This document shows, piece after piece, positions 1,057-19,762 of a stretch of 64,000 bases of DNA. The first letter of the stretch is position 1; every line of letters starts with the position of its first letter. The stretch comes from Verrucomicrobiota bacterium (GTDB taxonomy: Bacteria; Verrucomicrobiota; Verrucomicrobiia; Opitutales; Opitutaceae). The stretch is from contig CAUJJL010000086.1 of the NCBI GenBank assembly GCA_963205455.1, positions 1 to 64,000 on the forward strand, given 5' to 3'. The notes below the pieces were generated by a model. The model searched no databases and was not told where the DNA came from. It worked only from the letters and a program-made list of their open reading frames with translations. A program made the position numbers and the translations under genes.

Positions 1057-1240
1057 GCATCCAACTGAACCCGTGGAAAATCAATCTTCGGGAAACAAAC
1101 GCAAGCGGTTTTTTCACACCGGTTCCTGATTGAAGTTGCGCAGTGCCGCGTCGCTGTAAATGCAAGCAACCCATGATTGCTGATGCTTTTAGGACTTGGT
1201 TTTTCCCCGCCCAGCCGGTTTTCTTGAGGGTTTCATCGCC

Positions 1241-2155
1241 ATGGCCATCGCAATTCTCTTTGCAGGGCAGGGAGCCCAGAAAGTCGGAATGGGCAGGTCG
1301 CTTTACGAAGCGTCTGCCGCCGCGCGCGCTCTCTATGACGAGGCCGACCGCACGCTGGGCTGGAAATTGACGCAAGTCAGTTTCGAGGGTCCAGAGGCGG
1401 CACTTACTGAAACAAAAGTCTGCCAGCCAGCGCTGTTTGTTCATGGACTGGCGCTACTGGCATCAATGCACGAAGTCGGCCGTATCCCGGCCGGTGAGCC
1501 GCTCGCCGCATTGGGACTCTCCTTGGGCGAAGTCACCGCGTGCACGGCGGCAGGTGTTTTCGATTTTGCGACGGGACTCAGAGTCGTCGCTGAACGGGGA
1601 CGTCTGATGCAGGCTGCCTGTGAGAAAACGACTGGAGGCATGGCGGCTGTGATCGGAGAGGATCGTGCCCGAGTGGCCGAACTCTGCCGTGAGTTCGATA
1701 TTGAGGCGGCAAATTTCAATGCGCCTGGGCAGATCATCGTTTCCGGAGAGAAATCGAAAATTGAATCGACGATCGTCGCATGCAAGGAGCGGGGATGGAA
1801 ACGGGTCATGGCACTCAACGTCGCCGGCGCCTATCACTCCCGCCTGATGGAACCCGCACGTTTGGCATTTTCGACGTTCCTGGATTCCGTCCCGTTTACC
1901 GCCCCGAGATTCACTATTTTTACCAATACAACGGGAAATGCCATCCGCGGTCCCGAGGCAATCAAGGCTGCACTTGTAAAGCAGGTCGTTTCACCGGTGC
2001 TTTGGGAAGATTGCATGCGATCCGCCGTCGGCGCGGGAGTCACCCAGTTCTGGGAGCTTGGCCCCGGGGGGGTGCTGGCCGGCCTTGCCCGCCGTACGGA
2101 GAAGACCTGGACGGTGAAATCCTTTTCAGAATTCTCCGACCTGACCCTGGCCTGA
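1241..2155 (+). CDS. fabD: Malonyl-CoA:ACP transacylase FabD
   Basis: A 304-residue protein of normal FabD length. It moves the malonyl group from CoA to acyl carrier protein, supplying the extender unit for type II fatty acid synthesis in the cytoplasm. The N-terminal FAGQGAQ motif and the nucleophile elbow GLSLGEVTA are present; the Ser follows Leu, where most family members have His. The AYHSRLM block with the catalytic His and the C-terminal WELGPGGVLAGL segment also fit. I chose the ATG at 1241 because it begins the conserved MAIAILFAGQG block and has a GAGGG element about ten bases upstream. An in-frame GTG at 1196 would add 15 unconserved residues. Confidence 0.95.
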   Translation: MAIAILFAGQGAQKVGMGRSLYEASAAARALYDEADRTLGWKLTQVSFEGPEAALTETKVCQPALFVHGLALLASMHEVGRIPAGEPLAALGLSLGEVTACTAAGVFDFATGLRVVAERGRLMQAACEKTTGGMAAVIGEDRARVAELCREFDIEAANFNAPGQIIVSGEKSKIESTIVACKERGWKRVMALNVAGAYHSRLMEPARLAFSTFLDSVPFTAPRFTIFTNTTGNAIRGPEAIKAALVKQVVSPVLWEDCMRSAVGAGVTQFWELGPGGVLAGLARRTEKTWTVKSFSEFSDLTLA

Positions 2156-6619: not shown

Positions 6620-7507
6620 CTATAGCCCGTTCAACAGCGAGTGGATGGCTGGCTCGTCTCTGCCGTCATCAAGGACGTAGTGGCCGACGTTGGGCAGCAG
6701 CGTCATGGCGGCTTGCGGCAGGAATGTTTTCCACTCTTCAAGGAAGTGCTGATTGAAACAAAAATCCTTTCCGCCCCAGACGATGTTCACCGGGTGCGAG
6801 CGGAACTGGCCAAGTCCCGCTTCGATCGTCTGGAGCGTGGAAAAGGAAACGTGGTCCGGCTCCAGCGGGATGTCCTTGACGAAGGCGTCCACCGCCACGC
6901 GGTTGGCCCAGGAATTGTACGGGAAGAGGTATCCTTGCCTTTCGGCTGCGGTCAGGCGCCGGGCGTGCATGGCCATGGTGACCGCCGGGCCCGCGAAGCC
7001 GTTCAGGCCGCGAACGATCCAGGTGCCGAACGGACGTGAACGGCACAGTGCGATGCGCCTGGGGATGCAGTCCGAACGGAAGGCCGCCGTATTCAGGATC
7101 ACGATACGGCCGATGCGCGCGGGGTCTTTCACTGCGAGTCCGAAACCGATCGCTCCTCCCCAGTCGTGTACGATCAGGTGAATCCTTTTGATTCCCAGTG
7201 AGGATATCAGGGCCTCGATGTCCGCAATCCGTGTGGCCAGCGTGTATGGATAAGCCTCGGGCTTGTCCGACAGGCCCATCCCGATGTGATCCGGCACCAG
7301 GCAGCGGTGACGCGACCGAAGCGCCAGCAGAGCATTGCGATAAAAGAACGACCAGGTGGGGTTCCCGTGCAGCATCACAACCGCTTCGTCGCAGCGCGGC
7401 CCTTCGTCGACGTAGCTCATGCGCGCGCCTCGTGGCGTCGTAAACACGGCTGGCGTGAATGGATACAACCCGCGCACTGCCGGAGGGAGCGAATTGGGTG
7501 TCACCAT
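6620..7507 (-). CDS. oleB: OleB-like alpha/beta hydrolase (beta-lactone decarboxylase family)
   Basis: A 295-residue alpha/beta hydrolase of the haloalkane-dehalogenase-like group. The oxyanion region MLHGNPTWSFFYRN, the nucleophile Asp115 in VHDWGGAIG, the late acid Asp248 in WGGKDFCF and His276 in NVGHYV are all visible. The late Asp and the KDFCF signature match OleB rather than ordinary dehalogenases. OleB converts the cis-beta-lactone made by OleC into an alkene and CO2. Its ATG lies within the last bases of oleA (7-base overlap), so the two are probably translationally coupled. OleC and OleD are not encoded nearby. If they are absent from the genome, another hydrolase role must be considered. 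Confidence 0.8.
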   Translation of the reverse strand: MVTPNSLPPAVRGLYPFTPAVFTTPRGARMSYVDEGPRCDEAVVMLHGNPTWSFFYRNALLALRSRHRCLVPDHIGMGLSDKPEAYPYTLATRIADIEALISSLGIKRIHLIVHDWGGAIGFGLAVKDPARIGRIVILNTAAFRSDCIPRRIALCRSRPFGTWIVRGLNGFAGPAVTMAMHARRLTAAERQGYLFPYNSWANRVAVDAFVKDIPLEPDHVSFSTLQTIEAGLGQFRSHPVNIVWGGKDFCFNQHFLEEWKTFLPQAAMTLLPNVGHYVLDDGRDEPAIHSLLNGL

Positions 7508-8541
7508 TCGAGCGCGAGCATGAGACAGTTCAATCCACTGCCGATTCCCAGCAGCGCCACGCGCTGCCCCGGTTTGACTTCTCCGGCTTCGATGGCGGCC
7601 GCGAGGGTTGCGGGCAAAGAAACCGAGCCCATGTTGCCGAGGGTTTCGAAGGTTGAGAAATCCTTGGCCAGATCCAGTGCCAGGATCTCATAGAGACGGC
7701 GCCGATGGGTGTTGCCGACCTGATGGCAAATGAAGCGTGCAAAACTCGCGGCGCTGCCGTCGACAACGCGGCAGAATTCGTCCCAGGTTTCTTTGGCCAA
7801 CGCCACACCTGCGTCCAGCAGTCGCTCCGAGTCCGTCTGCATGGCCAGCGCATCCGCCCCATGGGTGTCACCCTTGCACAGGTCGCTATGCGCGGTGGCG
7901 GCCCGGGCCACCCCACCCACCAGGCGGTGGGGCTGGCGCCCACCGACCAGCAAGGAGCGGTGGCATACGACGGCGGCGACGGCGCCCGATCCGATTGTCA
8001 GATTGGCAAAATACGGCTTGATCTCGTTTCGCGTCAGCGGCTTTTCGAGCAGCGTCGCCAGAGTCTGCTCCACCAGCGGACGGCCGTTCTCACCGGCCAC
8101 CACCAGCGCGCAGCGGATCTGCCCCGCCTCAATCATGCTCCCGGCCACGGTGAGCGCGTTGAGAAATCCCAGGCAGGCGTTGGACAGGTCGAAGATCTGT
8201 GCGTGCGAGGGCAGACCAATCTTGCGGTGAGCAAAAGCGGCAGTGGCGGGCTCCAGCATGTCGCGACATACTGCGCTATGGATGAACAGGTCGATCTGCT
8301 CCGGACGCACACCCGAGCGTGCCAGAGCCGCGCGCCCTGCCTGGGCGCTGGCGTCGGACGGCAGCGTGCCCCGCGCCCAGACCCGCCGCTCGCGGATGCC
8401 GGTCATCAACTCGAGCCGACCCTCCGGCAGATTGAGCCGTCGATAGAGCGGCTGGAGGCGTCGCTCGATTTCATCGGAGCTCAAGACCTCCGTCGGCAGC
8501 ACCGTCGCAAGGGATTCAATGCAAGTGTGATCGAAACGCAT
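7501..8541 (-). CDS. oleA: OleA-like acyl-CoA condensing thiolase
   Basis: A 346-residue KAS III-fold enzyme. Catalytic residues are visible: Cys123 in LSNACLGFLN, His273 in CHQVGNTHR and Asn303 in LGNMGS. Glu97 in DMLEPATA matches the glutamate that OleA contributes across the dimer interface. The start (CIESLATVLPTEVLSSDE) and the LELMTGIRERR block are OleA-like rather than FabH-like. OleA joins two acyl-CoA chains head to head to give a beta-keto acid, the first step to long-chain olefins or ketones. It follows fabI by 14 bases and overlaps oleB. A plain FabH role is less likely given these motifs and the oleB partner. Confidence 0.85.
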   Translation of the reverse strand: MRFDHTCIESLATVLPTEVLSSDEIERRLQPLYRRLNLPEGRLELMTGIRERRVWARGTLPSDASAQAGRAALARSGVRPEQIDLFIHSAVCRDMLEPATAAFAHRKIGLPSHAQIFDLSNACLGFLNALTVAGSMIEAGQIRCALVVAGENGRPLVEQTLATLLEKPLTRNEIKPYFANLTIGSGAVAAVVCHRSLLVGGRQPHRLVGGVARAATAHSDLCKGDTHGADALAMQTDSERLLDAGVALAKETWDEFCRVVDGSAASFARFICHQVGNTHRRRLYEILALDLAKDFSTFETLGNMGSVSLPATLAAAIEAGEVKPGQRVALLGIGSGLNCLMLALEW

Positions 8542-8555
8542 CGTGCCGCACGCTG

Positions 8556-9371
8556 CTACTTTGCCTCCGGCCGCATCGCCAGCCGGATGATTTCCGCATC
8601 AAAAGCGTTCGACCCCAGACCCGCGTCGACCACCAGTGTGGTGCCATTCATCCCGCTGCTGCGAGGGCTGAGGAGAAAGAGCACGGCATTGGCGACCTCC
8701 TCGGTTGCAAGTGCGCGTTTGCGGAACGTGAGTTTCTCCGCGTAGAGGTAGCTCTCGAGATACCCGGGAATACCTGCGGACGCACTGGTCTTGAGTGGTC
8801 CGGCTCCAACAACATTGAACCGGATCTCGCTGTCTGCACTGAAGGACTTCGCCAGGAAACGCGATGTTGACTCCAAGGATGCCTTGATCGGCCCCATGTA
8901 GCCGTAGTTGTCGGGCGTCACTAGCAACGAAGAAATCCCGATCGACACGACCGAAGCAGCGGGATCCAGCAACGGCTTCAGGGCCCGCGCCAGTTCGACG
9001 AGCGAGAATGATGAAATGGCTGTGGCTTCGAGGAAATCGCTTCGCTTGGTTTCCTGAAAGGCCTTGAATCCATCGGAGTAGTTCGCGAAGGCGATCGAGT
9101 GAACCAACCCATGGATGACCGTGATGCCTGCGGCGGAGAGTTCACTCACCAGACCATCCGCAGCTCCTTCTTGCGCCACATCGCAGACAAACACAGGCCT
9201 GTCCTTCAGCAGTCCCTGCAAGGAGGAACGACGCGCCTCTGAGCGAACGCTGTAGGCTACCTTTGCTCCCTGCTCTTCCAACGCCCTGCCGACAAACCAG
9301 GCGACGCTTTTGCGATTGGCGACGCCGGTGACGACGATGGTTTTTCCGGCAAGTGCGAGAAAGTCGGCCAT
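8556..9371 (-). CDS. fabI: NADH-dependent enoyl-ACP reductase FabI
   Basis: A 271-residue atypical short-chain dehydrogenase. The cofactor loop reads VTGVANRKSVAW, as in FabI. The catalytic Tyr-x6-Lys pair lies in NYGYMGPIKASLES, using the first Tyr, and a SIAFANY-type segment precedes it. FabI reduces the enoyl-ACP double bond in the last step of each elongation cycle. I start at the ATG at 9369-9371 because it begins the conserved MADFLALAGKTIVVTG block; the longer frame from 9431 would overlap fabZ by nearly 50 bases. It lies 11 bases downstream of fabZ. Confidence 0.93.
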   Translation of the reverse strand: MADFLALAGKTIVVTGVANRKSVAWFVGRALEEQGAKVAYSVRSEARRSSLQGLLKDRPVFVCDVAQEGAADGLVSELSAAGITVIHGLVHSIAFANYSDGFKAFQETKRSDFLEATAISSFSLVELARALKPLLDPAASVVSIGISSLLVTPDNYGYMGPIKASLESTSRFLAKSFSADSEIRFNVVGAGPLKTSASAGIPGYLESYLYAEKLTFRKRALATEEVANAVLFLLSPRSSGMNGTTLVVDAGLGSNAFDAEIIRLAMRPEAK

Positions 9372-9382
9372 GATGCTGCGGA

Positions 9383-9853
9383 TCACGATGCCTGCGATGC
9401 CACATCCTTGCTTCCGGATGGGGTTTTCCACGCAACAGCGAATTCGACGGTGAGGATACGCGTATTATCCGGTTTCCGGACGGCGCCTGTCATCATTGTG
9501 AATCCGCCCAGCACATCCTTCCGCTTGACTTCGATCAGAATGGTGTCGCCGGGGAACACCGGATTCCGGAAGCGGACGTCATGGATTTTCGCCAGAAGCG
9601 GCACACCTGCGCCCAACTCGGTTTTTTGCGCCGAAGCCTGCCTGGAAAGAAAGACCGCGCCTGCCTGGAAGACCGCCTCGCAAAGAAGTACGCCTGGAGT
9701 GATGGGTGCGCCGGGATAGTGCCCGCGATAGAAGTCCTCCTCCGCCCGCCAGGTCCGGCGGGCGATGAGGCCATCGGGTGATTCCGACACAATGTCGTCG
9801 ACGAACAAGAACGGAGGACGGTGTGGTATGAGATCGGTGACAGCTGACGTCAT
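9383..9853 (-). CDS. fabZ: 3-hydroxyacyl-ACP dehydratase, FabZ type
   Basis: A 156-residue hot-dog-fold dehydratase. The catalytic helix region reads GHYPGAPITPGVLLCEA, giving the FabZ His (here HYPG rather than HFPG) and the helix Glu. The N-terminal LIPHRPPFLFVDDI block is also diagnostic. It removes water from 3-hydroxyacyl-ACP in fatty acid elongation. It is the first gene of a tight minus-strand run fabZ-fabI-oleA-oleB, so its promoter should lie in the 159-base gap shared with the divergent SPFH gene. No clear promoter hexamers are recognisable there. Confidence 0.93.
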   Translation of the reverse strand: MTSAVTDLIPHRPPFLFVDDIVSESPDGLIARRTWRAEEDFYRGHYPGAPITPGVLLCEAVFQAGAVFLSRQASAQKTELGAGVPLLAKIHDVRFRNPVFPGDTILIEVKRKDVLGGFTMMTGAVRKPDNTRILTVEFAVAWKTPSGSKDVASQAS

Positions 9854-14775: not shown

Positions 14776-15765
14776 TCATTTCAGCTCAGAAACGGGACTG
14801 GAGTTGCTGCTCATTGCCGAGGGCAACGCAGGCGTTCTGCGTCGCCGCCAGCGGGCGACCAGTCCTTCGTTCGGACTGACGATCCAGATCAATGCAAACA
14901 ACAGCGCTCCTGCGACGACCATCGCGGCTGCGATTGAGCAATCCAGCCATACTCCAAGCGTCACACCAAGCCATGAGCTGATGGCTGCGTGGACAAGCGA
15001 AAGCAGGTGAACTCTCGAAAGGCGGGTGGAAAGCAGCGATGCCGTTGCGCCGGGAAGGATCAGCATGGCCACCACAAGAATTGCGCCAACCGATTCAAAT
15101 GCGCTGACAACAACAACGGAGAGCGCCGCCATCAAACCATAGTGCATCAGGGTCGGATTGGTGCCCAGGGATCGTGCCAGTCCGGGGTCAAATGCGCTGA
15201 CGAGCAGCTCCTTGTAGAATGCGGCGATCAGGAGCCCGACCATGAGCAGCACCGCGGCCATTCTGACAAACGGAACGGGGCCCAGAACGAGGCCACCCAG
15301 GTTGATCATCGGCTCAAGCGGAACAAAGGCGATTTCGCCATAGAGGACACAGTCGGCGTCGAGATCCACCTGGCCCGCGTAGAGGCTGGTCATGACCACG
15401 CCGATCGCGAACAACGTTGAGAACGTAATGCCGATGGCGGCATCCTGCTTCACACGGGTCAGCTTGTGAATGCTCTCGATGGCTATCGTCGTGAAACCTC
15501 CCGCTGCGAGGGCGCCGGCGAACATGGGAAGAGTTCCACGGCTGCTTGTAACAAGAAACGCCGCAACGAGGCCGGGCAGGACGCTATGGCTGACCGCATC
15601 GCCCATCAGCGCCATGCGCCGCAGCATCAGGTAATTTCCCACAAGACCGCAGGCACCGGTCACCGCGAAGCCCATTGCAGCAATCCATCCAAAAAGGGAA
15701 AGGTTCTCCGTCCATGGCGCGACCAGCACCGCATGGGCATCGAAGGCAGGGATCATGGCATTCAT
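14776..15765 (-). CDS. Metal ABC transporter permease (ABC-3 family)
   Basis: A 329-residue integral membrane protein with about eight to nine hydrophobic helices. It carries the ABC-3 blocks RRMALMGDAVSHSVLPG near the start and AFYKELLVSAFDPGLARSLG in the middle, which face the ATPase. The family imports manganese, zinc or iron. It is the last gene of the five-gene minus-strand operon, and its ATG overlaps the stop of the fused permease gene by four bases. Two different permease polypeptides in one operon suggest a heterodimeric channel. Confidence 0.9.
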   Translation of the reverse strand: MNAMIPAFDAHAVLVAPWTENLSLFGWIAAMGFAVTGACGLVGNYLMLRRMALMGDAVSHSVLPGLVAAFLVTSSRGTLPMFAGALAAGGFTTIAIESIHKLTRVKQDAAIGITFSTLFAIGVVMTSLYAGQVDLDADCVLYGEIAFVPLEPMINLGGLVLGPVPFVRMAAVLLMVGLLIAAFYKELLVSAFDPGLARSLGTNPTLMHYGLMAALSVVVVSAFESVGAILVVAMLILPGATASLLSTRLSRVHLLSLVHAAISSWLGVTLGVWLDCSIAAAMVVAGALLFALIWIVSPNEGLVARWRRRRTPALPSAMSSNSSPVSELK

Positions 15766-17207
15766 TTTCCGGTTCCGTTGCCGCCCTCGCGTCGCGCGTC
15801 GCCTCCGTGAATCGCCCGCGCGCTCGGAATCGCCCGGCCGTGGGGATCGAAGGTTGCATAACCCAGGCGCCGCTCAAGATCGCGCACGACCGACTCGCCA
15901 AGGATGTGTTCGATCTTCTCCGCATCCTCGTGCACATGGTCAGCGGCGATGTTTGCCGATTGCGTCAGGTAGAGCTCCCAGAGGCGGTGATTGCGCACAA
16001 TCTCCCCTGCCCTCTTGCGTCCCGGAGGTGTGAAATAGAGAGCATCCCCTGAGAGCGTCGCCAGTCCGTGGCGAACGAGATCCCGTCCCAGACGCTGGGC
16101 ATCATCGATCGTTTCACGCCGCCGGATTGCCAGGTCATGGAGCGTGACCCCCTCCGTGCGGAATTGGGTCGCCTCCATGACGTGAAACATCGACTTGAGC
16201 GTGTTCTCACGTTGGGTTCGAGCTGCGCCTCTTCGGCGCAACATCCATCGGGCGACCACACCATGCCTCGGGCCGAAAAGAAAGGCGGCTGAGAACAAAG
16301 CACTCGCGCCAATCACCATGAGCGGTCCGGTCGGAAGACTGGGACCTACAAAGGACAGGAAGGCACCCGCCATGCCTGCACCCACGCCGAAGGCCGCTGC
16401 CATCACGACCAAGCGGTGAAGCCTGTCCGTGAGCAGGTAGGCCGCAGATGCGGGAGTGATCAGCATGGCCGACACCAGCACCACACCGACGGCCTGAAGC
16501 GCGATGACAACCGATGCAGTCAGCAGCAGCATGAGTCCGTGGTGTATCCAGCGCGTCGGCAAACCGATTGATCGCGAAAATCCGGGATCGAAACTCGATG
16601 CAAGCAGCTCCTTGTAGAAGGCGACGACCATGACGACGGCTATCGTGGTGACGAGGGCCATCAGTGTGATGTCCTCTGCACTGAGCGCGGCAGCCTGGCC
16701 GAAGAGAAACTTGTCCAGCCCGCTCTTGTTGCCTGTCGGCAGGCGCTGAATCATGGTGACAAGACAGATTCCAATCGCGAAGAACGTCGCGAGCACGAGG
16801 CCGAGCGCGGCGTCCTCCTTGAGGCGGGTTGTGCGGGAAATCGCCGAGACAAGAAATGTGCCCAGCAGTCCCGCAATCGTCGCCCCGATGAGGATCGCGA
16901 GGGGGTCCTTCGTCATGTTCCAGAGAAACCCTATCGCTACGCCGGGCAGAACAGCGTGAGAAAGCGCATCCCCCATCAGCGCCATCTTGCGCACCACGAT
17001 GAAGCTTCCCAAAAGACCGCAGCTCAGTCCGAGCAACACCGATCCGATGAGCGCGAAACGAACCGACGCGTCCTGCAGCGTGAGAAAGCGCACGATCTGG
17101 GTGCTCCAATCTGAGCTGACAAACTCACGCACACCGGCTGCTTCAACCGGAGATGTCGCCGCGGCCACTAGCAGAATCAGAAGAGCTCTCGATGCTGTTC
17201 GACTCAT
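15762..17207 (-). CDS. Metal ABC permease fused to a C-terminal DtxR/MntR-like metal-sensor domain
   Basis: A 481-residue fusion. It begins with a signal-peptide-like segment (residues 1-25), followed by an ABC-3 permease body to about 335 (VRKMALMGDALSHAVLPG, then FYKELLASSFDPGFSRSIG). The last 140 residues read as a DtxR-family regulator: a helix-turn-helix-like stretch (VTLHDLAIRRRETIDDAQRL), then NHRLWELYL and HEDAEKIEHIL, which carry the metal-binding and dimerisation His/Glu residues, and DPHGRAIPS. The sensor should lie on the cytoplasmic side. It could gate transport according to metal load, or bind DNA while membrane-anchored. Such fusions occur in Bacteroidetes and Planctomycetes relatives as far as I know. 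An alternative GTG start at 17240 lies just beyond the ATPase stop. Confidence 0.88.
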   Translation of the reverse strand: MSRTASRALLILLVAAATSPVEAAGVREFVSSDWSTQIVRFLTLQDASVRFALIGSVLLGLSCGLLGSFIVVRKMALMGDALSHAVLPGVAIGFLWNMTKDPLAILIGATIAGLLGTFLVSAISRTTRLKEDAALGLVLATFFAIGICLVTMIQRLPTGNKSGLDKFLFGQAAALSAEDITLMALVTTIAVVMVVAFYKELLASSFDPGFSRSIGLPTRWIHHGLMLLLTASVVIALQAVGVVLVSAMLITPASAAYLLTDRLHRLVVMAAAFGVGAGMAGAFLSFVGPSLPTGPLMVIGASALFSAAFLFGPRHGVVARWMLRRRGAARTQRENTLKSMFHVMEATQFRTEGVTLHDLAIRRRETIDDAQRLGRDLVRHGLATLSGDALYFTPPGRKRAGEIVRNHRLWELYLTQSANIAADHVHEDAEKIEHILGESVVRDLERRLGYATFDPHGRAIPSARAIHGGDARREGGNGTGK

Positions 17208-17240
17208 GGTTGGCGGTTTGTCAGAAACGGGATGGGACAC

Positions 17241-18020
17241 CTATCGCGACGCTCCATGCGCGCCGAGCGCCTGCGCGACTTCACTGAGAATGGTCAGGCG
17301 CCCACCATAGGTCTTCTGCAGAAGTTCCGCGGTGAAGACCTCCGCTGTTTTTCCGAAGGCGACCACGTTCATGTTGAGAAGGAGCAGATCGTCAAAATAC
17401 TGGCGGGCCGTTGGAAGGTCGTGGTGGACGACGAGCAGTGTCTTCCCCATGTCGCGAAGTTCGCGCAGCACGGCAATGATGGCCGCTTCGGTAGCCGCAT
17501 CCACACCCGCGAACGGCTCGTCCATGAAATAGATGTCCGCCTCCTGGGCAAGCGCGCGCGCAAGGAAGACTCGCTGCTGCTGCCCGCCCGACAGATTCGC
17601 AATCTGGCGGTTCGCATAAGGCAGGAGGTGGACTTTTTCCAGACAGGCGCGGGCAATAATCCGGTCAGCTTTGCTTGGGCGACGCAGGAGTCCGAGGCGT
17701 CCGTATCTTCCCATCAAGACCACATCCATCACGTTGACTGGAAAGTCCCAATCCACCGATTCACGTTGAGGCACGTACCCCACGCGTCGCGCCATCTTGT
17801 GAAATGATTCGCCGAAGAATTTAACCCAACCGCTTTGCAGTGGCAGCAGTCCCATGCAAGCCTTGATAAGTGTCGACTTGCCTGCCCCATTGGGTCCCAC
17901 GATCCCGATGAGGCGTCCGGGCTCAATGACGAGGTCGACTCCCCACAGGACGGGCTTCTTGTGGTAGGCGACAGTCAGGTCGTGTATCTCCAGAGGTGCG
18001 TAGGGCTCGCTCATGATCAA
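17241..18020 (-). CDS. Metal ABC transporter ATP-binding protein (MntB/ZnuC type)
   Basis: A 259-residue ABC ATPase. Walker A is GPNGAGKST, the Q-loop is YVPQRESVDWDFP, the signature is LSGGQQQR and Walker B is IYFMDEPFAGVD, followed by the H-loop in VVHHDLP. The VDWDFPV stretch after the Q-loop is characteristic of manganese/zinc/iron chelate transporters. It energises the two permeases encoded directly downstream. It lies between the barrel gene (stop and start almost touch) and the permease-DtxR fusion. Confidence 0.92.
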   Translation of the reverse strand: MIMSEPYAPLEIHDLTVAYHKKPVLWGVDLVIEPGRLIGIVGPNGAGKSTLIKACMGLLPLQSGWVKFFGESFHKMARRVGYVPQRESVDWDFPVNVMDVVLMGRYGRLGLLRRPSKADRIIARACLEKVHLLPYANRQIANLSGGQQQRVFLARALAQEADIYFMDEPFAGVDAATEAAIIAVLRELRDMGKTLLVVHHDLPTARQYFDDLLLLNMNVVAFGKTAEVFTAELLQKTYGGRLTILSEVAQALGAHGASR

Positions 18021-18842
18021 TCAGAAACGTTGTGAGAAACCCAGGGTCACCACCAGATCGGGCGCCGTTCGGGTCAATCCGATGGCCACGCCCGCATCGA
18101 GCTGCAGGTTGTCGTTAACCATAAAAGTCAGTCCGGTATTGAAGCCCAAGGCTGGTTTGCCTGCACCCGTCTCAATCGTGAGTTCCACAAAGGCGCCAAG
18201 CGTGTCGGTGAGATCCCGACCAAGCGTGACCGTATTGATCCAAATCTTGTCGTAGCTGTCGCGTTCGTTGCGCGAGAGGTCCAGCTCCGTCATTGCCCCC
18301 AGGCTCATCTCTCGCCCCAGTTTCATCGCGAAGGGAAAGATAATGCCTCCTTCGACGAAATCGTTGCCGAGCCCATCTGACGCGGTGGGCAGCTTGACGA
18401 AGGGCATCACGCCGAAGGCCGTTTTTCCGCCATCGTTTCCCCAGAAATTACATTTGGCCCGCAGCGTGATATCGCCCAGCCCCCGCTGTCGAATGCGAAT
18501 GCCCAGCGGCCGATCCTCAACCTTTACGTCGAGGTGTCCGTCAACCACCACCTGCAGTTCCCACCGCGGTGTCAGCCCCAGGCGCAGGTTAAAAGGCAGG
18601 AAATTCCAGATTTCCACGCGTATGCCGTCCCATTCGGAAGTGTATCTCTCCCGCAGCCAGCTTGCCGCACTTGCTTCCAGTTGCATGCGTCCGGGCTCGA
18701 GTGTGAAGGGACTCTCTGTCGCATCGGGGCGATCCGTGCTGAATTCACGCGCAGCCTCGATTTCGCATGGGCACACCATCACGGCAAAGAGGACAACGGG
18801 ATGGAAAAGATGACGCGGATTCTGAAAAAAGAATCGGTTCAT
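18021..18842 (-). CDS. Outer-membrane beta-barrel protein (transporter/MetA-like family) within the metal operon
   Basis: A 273-residue protein with a signal peptide (about 1-30, FHPVVLFAVMVCPCEIEA). Amphipathic strands begin with STDRPDATESPFTLEPG, a start I associate with the phenol-degradation MetA-like outer-membrane family, and the last residue is Phe (TLGFSQRF). It is probably a channel or structural barrel in the outer membrane. Its ATG overlaps the stop of the binding-protein gene (ATGA at 18839-18842) and it ends one base from the ATPase start. It is therefore an integral part of the operon and may admit the metal or its chelate across the outer membrane. Confidence 0.75.
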   Translation of the reverse strand: MNRFFFQNPRHLFHPVVLFAVMVCPCEIEAAREFSTDRPDATESPFTLEPGRMQLEASAASWLRERYTSEWDGIRVEIWNFLPFNLRLGLTPRWELQVVVDGHLDVKVEDRPLGIRIRQRGLGDITLRAKCNFWGNDGGKTAFGVMPFVKLPTASDGLGNDFVEGGIIFPFAMKLGREMSLGAMTELDLSRNERDSYDKIWINTVTLGRDLTDTLGAFVELTIETGAGKPALGFNTGLTFMVNDNLQLDAGVAIGLTRTAPDLVVTLGFSQRF

Positions 18843-19762
18843 TTGAGAGAGTCGACGATCGTTGTCAGGTTATGCTTGATCATGCCTTCGTAGGTTCCGA
18901 GGTCATAGCCGTTTTCGATGGCACCCGGTGTTCCCATCGCATCGGAGAACAACTCCCCGCCGATCCTCACGCCGGCATCCCGTGAGACCCGCTCAATGGT
19001 GGCGTGAGGCACGCTGGATTCGACGAAGATCGCCTTGACGCGGTGGGATCGGATGAAATCGACGAGTTTGGCCATGTCCGACAAGGCGGCTTCGCTGACG
19101 GTGGATATTCCCTGGAGGCCGATCACCTTGAAACCATAGGCGCGACCAAAGTAATTGTAGGCATCGTGGCTGGTGACGAGGATGCGACGATCCACGGTCA
19201 ATTCAGTGGCCTTGGCCAGAGACCAGCGGTGCAGCGCCTCAAGGGAGCGTCGCAGCGCGATTCCGCGGGCCTCGAATTGCGTTTTGTGCGCGGGGTCATT
19301 TGCCGCCAGCGTTTCCACGACCGGCTGGATGCATTGGATCCAAAGGGAAACATCGAACCAAATGTGAGGATCGGGATGCCCCTCGAATTTTGGCGGATGC
19401 AGCAAACTCTCCCTCGGGATTTCGCGCGAGACTGCGACCACGGGCTTGTGTTTCTCGAGCCGTTCAAACAGCTCGGCCATCTTTCCCTCGAGCATCAGGC
19501 CATTGTAGAAAATGACGTCGGCCTTCTGCAGTTCGATGACGTCAGAAGCGCGCGCCTTGTAAAGGTGGGGATCGACCCCAGGCCCCATCAGTCCGGTGAC
19601 CGATGTCGCCTCCCCGCCAATCTGCCTGACCAGATCCGTGATCATCGTCGTGGTGGTGACCACACGCAGCGGGGACGCCAGAGCAGCCGCGGAGAGGAGG
19701 AGCGAGAGTGCGGCGCTCGTAAGGGCAGCGTAACGTGGCTTCAGGATCATGAATGCATGCAA
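18839..19762 (-). CDS. Metal-binding periplasmic protein (TroA/ZnuA family)
   Basis: A 307-residue cluster A-I solute-binding protein with a signal peptide (about 1-29). Likely metal ligands are His66 in VDPHLYKA, His133 in PDPHIWFD, His199 in TSHDAYNYF and Asp274 in LFSDAMG. The His-His-His-Asp set is the TroA pattern (zinc or manganese); the PsaA-type manganese proteins have Glu at the third place. It delivers metal to the permeases in the periplasm. It is the first gene of the operon, with two palindromes just upstream. An in-frame ATG at 19750 is an alternative start. Confidence 0.93.
   Translation of the reverse strand: MHAFMILKPRYAALTSAALSLLLSAAALASPLRVVTTTTMITDLVRQIGGEATSVTGLMGPGVDPHLYKARASDVIELQKADVIFYNGLMLEGKMAELFERLEKHKPVVAVSREIPRESLLHPPKFEGHPDPHIWFDVSLWIQCIQPVVETLAANDPAHKTQFEARGIALRRSLEALHRWSLAKATELTVDRRILVTSHDAYNYFGRAYGFKVIGLQGISTVSEAALSDMAKLVDFIRSHRVKAIFVESSVPHATIERVSRDAGVRIGGELFSDAMGTPGAIENGYDLGTYEGMIKHNLTTIVDSLK

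What the first reader, a model, noticed from the sequence alone, without database searches (positions are those of the whole stretch)
6620..9853. oleA and oleB embedded with fabZ and fabI, without oleC or oleD
The four minus-strand genes are spaced by 11, 14 and -7 bases. Known: making olefins needs OleC (beta-lactone synthetase) and OleD (reductase) between OleA and OleB. Here they are missing locally while fatty acid synthesis genes lie immediately upstream. Either oleC/oleD lie elsewhere, or the pathway ends differently, for example with ketones.
Basis: partly seen in the sequence, partly recalled or inferred. Interest (0 to 1): 0.6.

Follow-up and report, generated by a model that had tools for sequence, protein, structure and literature searches.

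The report
Split olefin-synthesis (ole) pathway, Opitutaceae
This Verrucomicrobial bacterium keeps two genes for making long-chain membrane hydrocarbons beside two spare fatty-acid-synthesis genes; the two 'missing' pathway genes are present elsewhere in its genome, as in most of its relatives, so the pathway looks complete but scattered rather than cut short.

Summary
The four minus-strand genes are real, with the spacings stated (+11, +14, -7). The window is from an Opitutaceae (Verrucomicrobiota) assembly. OleA carries all four known catalytic residues and OleB its nucleophile. The key inference, that oleC and oleD are missing, fails genome-wide: the same genome encodes an OleC homologue (contig C94) and an OleD homologue (C124), full-length and 45-48% identical to OleC and OleD of a contiguous oleABCD cluster. 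Among 57 genomes, 49 have oleA, oleC, oleD, the linked fabI and a CrtI-like FAD oxidoreductase (FADox), and 4 have none. OleA and OleC are never within 5 kb, and are megabases apart in single-contig genomes. Commonly one locus is FADox-fabZ-fabI-oleA-oleB and the other oleC-oleD; in the window's genus these are dispersed further. The fabI and fabZ are extra copies (FabV and another FabZ-like protein exist), and this FabI is a distinct subtype. Most likely: a complete but split Ole pathway with a dedicated acyl-supply module. The olefin product is inferred, not shown. ole genes in Opitutae were already reported; I found no description of the split layout and its partners in the library searched.

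The parts
9383..9853 (-). fabZ-like 3-hydroxyacyl-ACP dehydratase, first gene of the local operon; an extra copy beside a 466-aa-frame FabA-domain (probably LpxC/FabZ) protein elsewhere
   Evidence: PF07977 68 bits; FabZ models 88-93 bits, below their cut-offs; three FabA-domain proteins in the genome; HYPG..PGVLLCEA motif read directly
8556..9371 (-). FabI-type enoyl-ACP reductase subtype tied to oleA; second enoyl reductase besides FabV
   Evidence: PF13561 180 bits; best NCBIfam FabI 164 bits, below cut-off; solved FabIs E 3e-38; Ile for Tyr146 in 89/89 family members with Tyr156/Lys163 kept; FabV present in 53/57 genomes including those lacking the ole set
7501..8541 (-). oleA: head-to-head acyl condensing enzyme (thiolase fold)
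   Evidence: PRK09258 446 bits over cut-off 285; solved Xanthomonas-type OleA E 4e-65; E97, C123, H273, N303 invariant in 10 sequences, equal to E117, C143, H285, N315 of tagged XcOleA
6620..7507 (-). oleB: beta-lactone decarboxylase homologue (haloalkane dehalogenase-like); overlaps oleA by 7 bases
   Evidence: PF00561 89 bits; haloalkane dehalogenase models 121-137 bits, below cut-offs; N49, D115, W116, D248, H276 invariant, including OleB of a contiguous oleABCD cluster

Best explanation
The four genes are the OleA/OleB end of a complete olefin (Ole) pathway whose OleC and OleD are encoded at other loci of the same genome. OleA condenses two fatty-acyl thioesters head to head; OleD (contig C124) reduces the 2-alkyl-3-oxo acid; OleC (contig C94) closes the beta-lactone; OleB decarboxylates it to an internal cis-olefin. 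The FabZ and FabI in the same operon-like run are extra copies that probably complete chain-elongation cycles on acyl-ACP to feed OleA, much as the Pfa synthase feeds Shewanella OleA. The co-occurring CrtI-like FAD oxidoreductase possibly sets the saturation of the chain or product. Shown here: presence, conservation, catalytic residues of OleA and OleB, co-occurrence and dispersed layout of the parts. Inferred: the reaction sequence, the olefin product, and the roles of FabZ, FabI and the FAD enzyme.
For: OleC homologue in own genome: 569 aa, PRK09274 635 bits over cut-off 478; next best are the two olefin beta-lactone synthetase models (550, 439 bits), and the next family has 161 bits. OleD homologue: 334 aa, OleD models 384 and 324 bits against 112 for the next. 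Both align end to end (45-48% identity) with OleC/OleD of a contiguous oleA-B-C-D cluster in relative G036. Of 57 genomes, 49 have oleA+oleC+oleD+FADox+fabI, 4 have none, 4 have partial sets (Fisher p 2e-4 to 3e-8, not corrected for phylogeny). Not an assembly artefact: in single-contig G012, G013, G021, G028 oleA and oleC are 1.8-3.2 Mb apart, and close relative G005 matches all three own loci at 98/95/92%. FabV is the likely housekeeping reductase, present even in the four genomes lacking the ole set, which also lack this FabI. OleA alone gives ketone, and Shewanella OleA is argued to take acyl-ACP in vivo (PMC6463001).
Against: No product data. OleC and OleD score below the curated cut-offs of the OleC/OleD equivalog models (550 vs 900; 384 vs 580), though so do the proteins of the contiguous G036 cluster (694; 417). 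A lone OleD homologue could act on another substrate. G053 and G050 have oleC and FADox but no detected oleA, possibly incomplete assemblies. The roles of FabZ, FabI and FADox rest on position and co-occurrence only.
Confidence: 0.72

Rival explanations
1. The pathway is truncated: OleA makes a beta-keto acid that decarboxylates to a long-chain ketone, and OleB has some other esterase or hydrolase role.
For: No oleC or oleD within 5 kb of oleA in any of 50 genomes with both; OleA expressed alone does give ketones (PMC6463001).
Against: OleC and OleD homologues are in the same genome and co-occur with oleA; OleB keeps the residues of OleB from a contiguous cluster.
Confidence: 0.06
2. FabZ and FabI are ordinary fatty-acid-synthesis genes that happen to sit beside oleAB, with no dedicated role.
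For: fabD is also nearby (window 1196-2155); some relatives such as Ereboglobus have oleAB without fabZ/fabI alongside.
Against: This fabI is absent exactly where oleA is absent (51/0 against 0/6); FabV and other FabA-domain proteins exist for the core pathway; it is a distinct FabI subtype with 89/89 Ile at the Tyr146 position.
Confidence: 0.2
3. The product is a beta-lactone rather than an olefin.
For: oleACD sets without oleB make beta-lactone natural products (PMC7064751).
Against: oleB is present and overlaps oleA, with catalytic residues kept; no obvious natural-product tailoring genes among the neighbours scanned.
Confidence: 0.04

Closest known systems
oleABCD olefin pathway (Xanthomonas, Shewanella, Micrococcus)
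   Same: All four enzyme families are present, with the catalytic residues of OleA and OleB kept
   Different: Genes split over two or more loci instead of one cluster; fabZ, fabI and (in many relatives) a CrtI-like FAD enzyme are attached to the oleAB half
pfa-ole coupling in Shewanella (PMC6463001)
   Same: A dedicated acyl supply appears to feed OleA
   Different: Supply would be discrete FabZ/FabI, not a Pfa synthase; a Pfa-like synthase does sit beside the second, contiguous oleABCD cluster of relative G036
oleABCD reported in freshwater Opitutae (PMC5673642) and olefin genes/oleC in Opitutaceae MAGs (PMC10176705)
   Same: Same taxonomic group and genes
   Different: Described there as an operon, or by oleC; the split layout and the linked FabZ/FabI/FADox were not mentioned in the passages read

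Membership tests
OleA | Full-length match to the PRK09258/OleA family | tested here: met
   446 bits, cut-off 285; solved OleA E 4e-65 over 1-346
OleA | Catalytic Cys, His, Asn and the Glu that distinguishes OleA from FabH | tested here: met
   C123, H273, N303, E97 invariant
OleA | Non-decarboxylative Claisen condensation of two long acyl chains | not testable with these tools
   needs an enzyme assay
OleB | Haloalkane dehalogenase-like protein with Asp nucleophile, Trp/Asn, His | tested here: met
   N49, D115, W116, D248, H276 invariant
OleB | Beta-lactone decarboxylation | not testable with these tools
   needs an enzyme assay
OleC | Olefin beta-lactone synthetase family membership | tested here: inconclusive
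   PRK09274 over cut-off (635 vs 478); OleC equivalog models are the next best hits but below cut-off (550 vs 900), as is OleC of a contiguous cluster (694)
OleD | 2-alkyl-3-oxoalkanoate reductase family membership | tested here: inconclusive
   384 bits vs cut-off 580; contiguous-cluster OleD 417; next family 112
oleABCD gene cluster | Four genes contiguous or nearly so | tested here: not met
   oleA and oleC/oleD never within 5 kb in 50 genomes
FabI | Y-x6-K catalytic pair | tested here: met
   Y156/K163 equivalents in 89/89; Tyr146 replaced by Ile in 89/89
FabI | Curated FabI equivalog cut-off | tested here: not met
   best 164 bits vs 362

The most novel reading that the evidence does not exclude
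FabZ, the divergent FabI and the CrtI-like FAD enzyme are genuine Ole-pathway components that give Opitutales hydrocarbons a chain length or saturation pattern not made by known oleABCD bacteria; that is, a lineage-specific extended Ole pathway with its own partial fatty-acid synthase.
Probability: 0.35. Interest if true: 0.6.

Novelty: new variant of a known kind. Interest (0 to 1): 0.4.

Why it matters
Surveys that recognise Ole pathways by a contiguous oleABCD cluster, or that require flanking ole genes (PMC7064751), can miss or misread split pathways like this one, which is near-universal in the Opitutaceae sampled. The linked FabZ/FabI/FAD enzymes give a concrete handle on how an organism directs particular acyl chains to hydrocarbon synthesis.

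Tried and rejected
AlphaFold model of the FAD oxidoreductase (7-sequence alignment) was poor (mean pLDDT 47.7), so no fold search was run. Sequence search of solved structures gave only weak CrtI/amine-oxidase matches, so its reaction stays open. Promoter/terminator scan of the operon gave no more than chance. A first guess that the gene after oleC in the own genome was the FAD oxidoreductase was wrong: it is an AAA/TPR protein; the FAD gene is at C63. An apparent oleA-oleB fusion in Ereboglobus L174 was rejected: the two matches lie in different frames. Sukovich et al. 2010 is not held, so I could not check whether it already records the split layout in Verrucomicrobia.

Full report
Observation. 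Families are supported by Pfam, NCBIfam and solved structures. OleA matches PRK09258 at 446 bits (cut-off 285) and solved Xanthomonas-type OleA over its full length. Its Glu97, Cys123, His273 and Asn303 correspond, by the alignment, to Glu117, Cys143, His285 and Asn315 in the tagged XcOleA numbering used in the literature (numbering from my own knowledge), and are invariant in ten sequences. OleB keeps Asn49, Asp115, Trp116, Asp248 and His276, shared with OleB from a contiguous oleABCD cluster.

Where the window comes from. The closest named records are Opitutaceae / Opitutae metagenome assemblies (Verrucomicrobiota); the nearest, isolate BJ21, has OleA 98% identical. The own genome is 4.56 Mb in 210 contigs, 97.9% complete.

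oleC and oleD are not missing. The own genome has five AMP-binding proteins (six matches, two of them in one frame). One, at C94:40207-41913, matches PRK09274 at 635 bits (cut-off 478), and its next best models are the two olefin beta-lactone synthetase families; of the rest, one is an acetate-CoA ligase, one is like acyl-ACP ligase/acyltransferase and one is a more distant ligase; the fifth, at C84, was not classified. Of eleven 3-beta-HSD-type proteins, the best, at C124:4682-5683, has the two OleD models as its top hits (384 and 324 bits; next 112). Both proteins align end to end with OleC and OleD of a contiguous oleA-B-C-D cluster in relative G036 (45% and 48%). They fall below the strict equivalog cut-offs, but so do the proteins of that contiguous cluster.

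The arrangement is general. In 57 genomes of the order, 49 have oleA, oleC, oleD, the linked fabI and the FAD oxidoreductase; G040, G042, G043 and G051 have none; four have partial sets. The p-values ignore shared ancestry and should be read as descriptive. oleA is never within 5 kb of this oleC or oleD; in single-contig genomes the distance oleA-oleC is 1.8-3.2 Mb (G012, G013, G021, G028). oleC and oleD are neighbours in 29 of 50 genomes, and FADox lies beside fabZ-fabI in 26 of 50. In the own genome all of these are apart: FADox on C63, oleC on C94, oleD on C124. In 80 named loci the order FADox-fabZ-fabI-oleA-oleB is the commonest. In other lineages of the phylum oleA is found with oleB or alone, without fabZ/fabI beside it in the loci examined.

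FabZ and FabI look like dedicated copies. FabV-type enoyl reductase is found in 53 of 57 genomes, including the four without any ole gene, which also lack this FabI. The own genome has three FabA-domain proteins. Arg at position 40 in 89/89 would fit NADPH use, by analogy with S. aureus FabI (own knowledge, untested).

Mechanism. With OleA, B, C and D all encoded, the established route to internal olefins is the simplest reading. OleA of Shewanella has been argued to take acyl-ACP in vivo from a dedicated synthase, and gives ketone when expressed without OleBCD (PMC6463001). By analogy, FabZ and FabI would complete elongation cycles that feed OleA. FabZ/FabI acting after OleA is less likely, because OleA's product is a free acid while these enzymes use thioesters (established knowledge). 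The FAD oxidoreductase belongs to the CrtI/amine-oxidase superfamily; its role is a guess.

Novelty. Ole genes in Opitutae are known (PMC5673642; PMC10176705; phylum-level in PMC7158056; OleA in Opitutae in PMC7064751). I found no description of the split layout with FabZ/FabI/FADox, but the library lacks Sukovich et al. 2010.

Noticed in passing
L070 (G036:C4:12000-26000): A relative carries a second, contiguous oleA-B-C-D cluster directly downstream of a 2244-aa Pfa-like synthase (two KS, acyltransferase, three FabA regions), besides the split set.
   Followed up: partly
L209-L213, L215, L216, L219, L220: Other Verrucomicrobiota lineages have oleA (39-54% identical) with no oleB, oleC or clear oleD found nearby; in L213 it sits beside enolase and aconitase.
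   Followed up: partly
L174 and L180: Ereboglobus and a related Opitutaceae MAG have oleA-oleB without fabZ, fabI or FADox alongside.
   Followed up: no
window 1196-2155 +: fabD (TIGR00128 284 bits, over cut-off) followed by lepA and lepB, convergent with the fabZ-fabI-oleA-oleB operon.
   Followed up: partly
window 14776-19762 -: Metal uptake genes: ZnuA-like binding protein and ABC-3 permeases, one fused to an iron-dependent-repressor C-terminal domain.
   Followed up: no
window 8556-9371 - and 88 relatives: The ole-linked FabI has Ile at the Tyr146 position and Arg at position 40 in every sequence examined.
   Followed up: partly
G053, G050: oleC and the FAD oxidoreductase are present but no oleA was found; incomplete assembly or real loss not resolved.
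   Followed up: no
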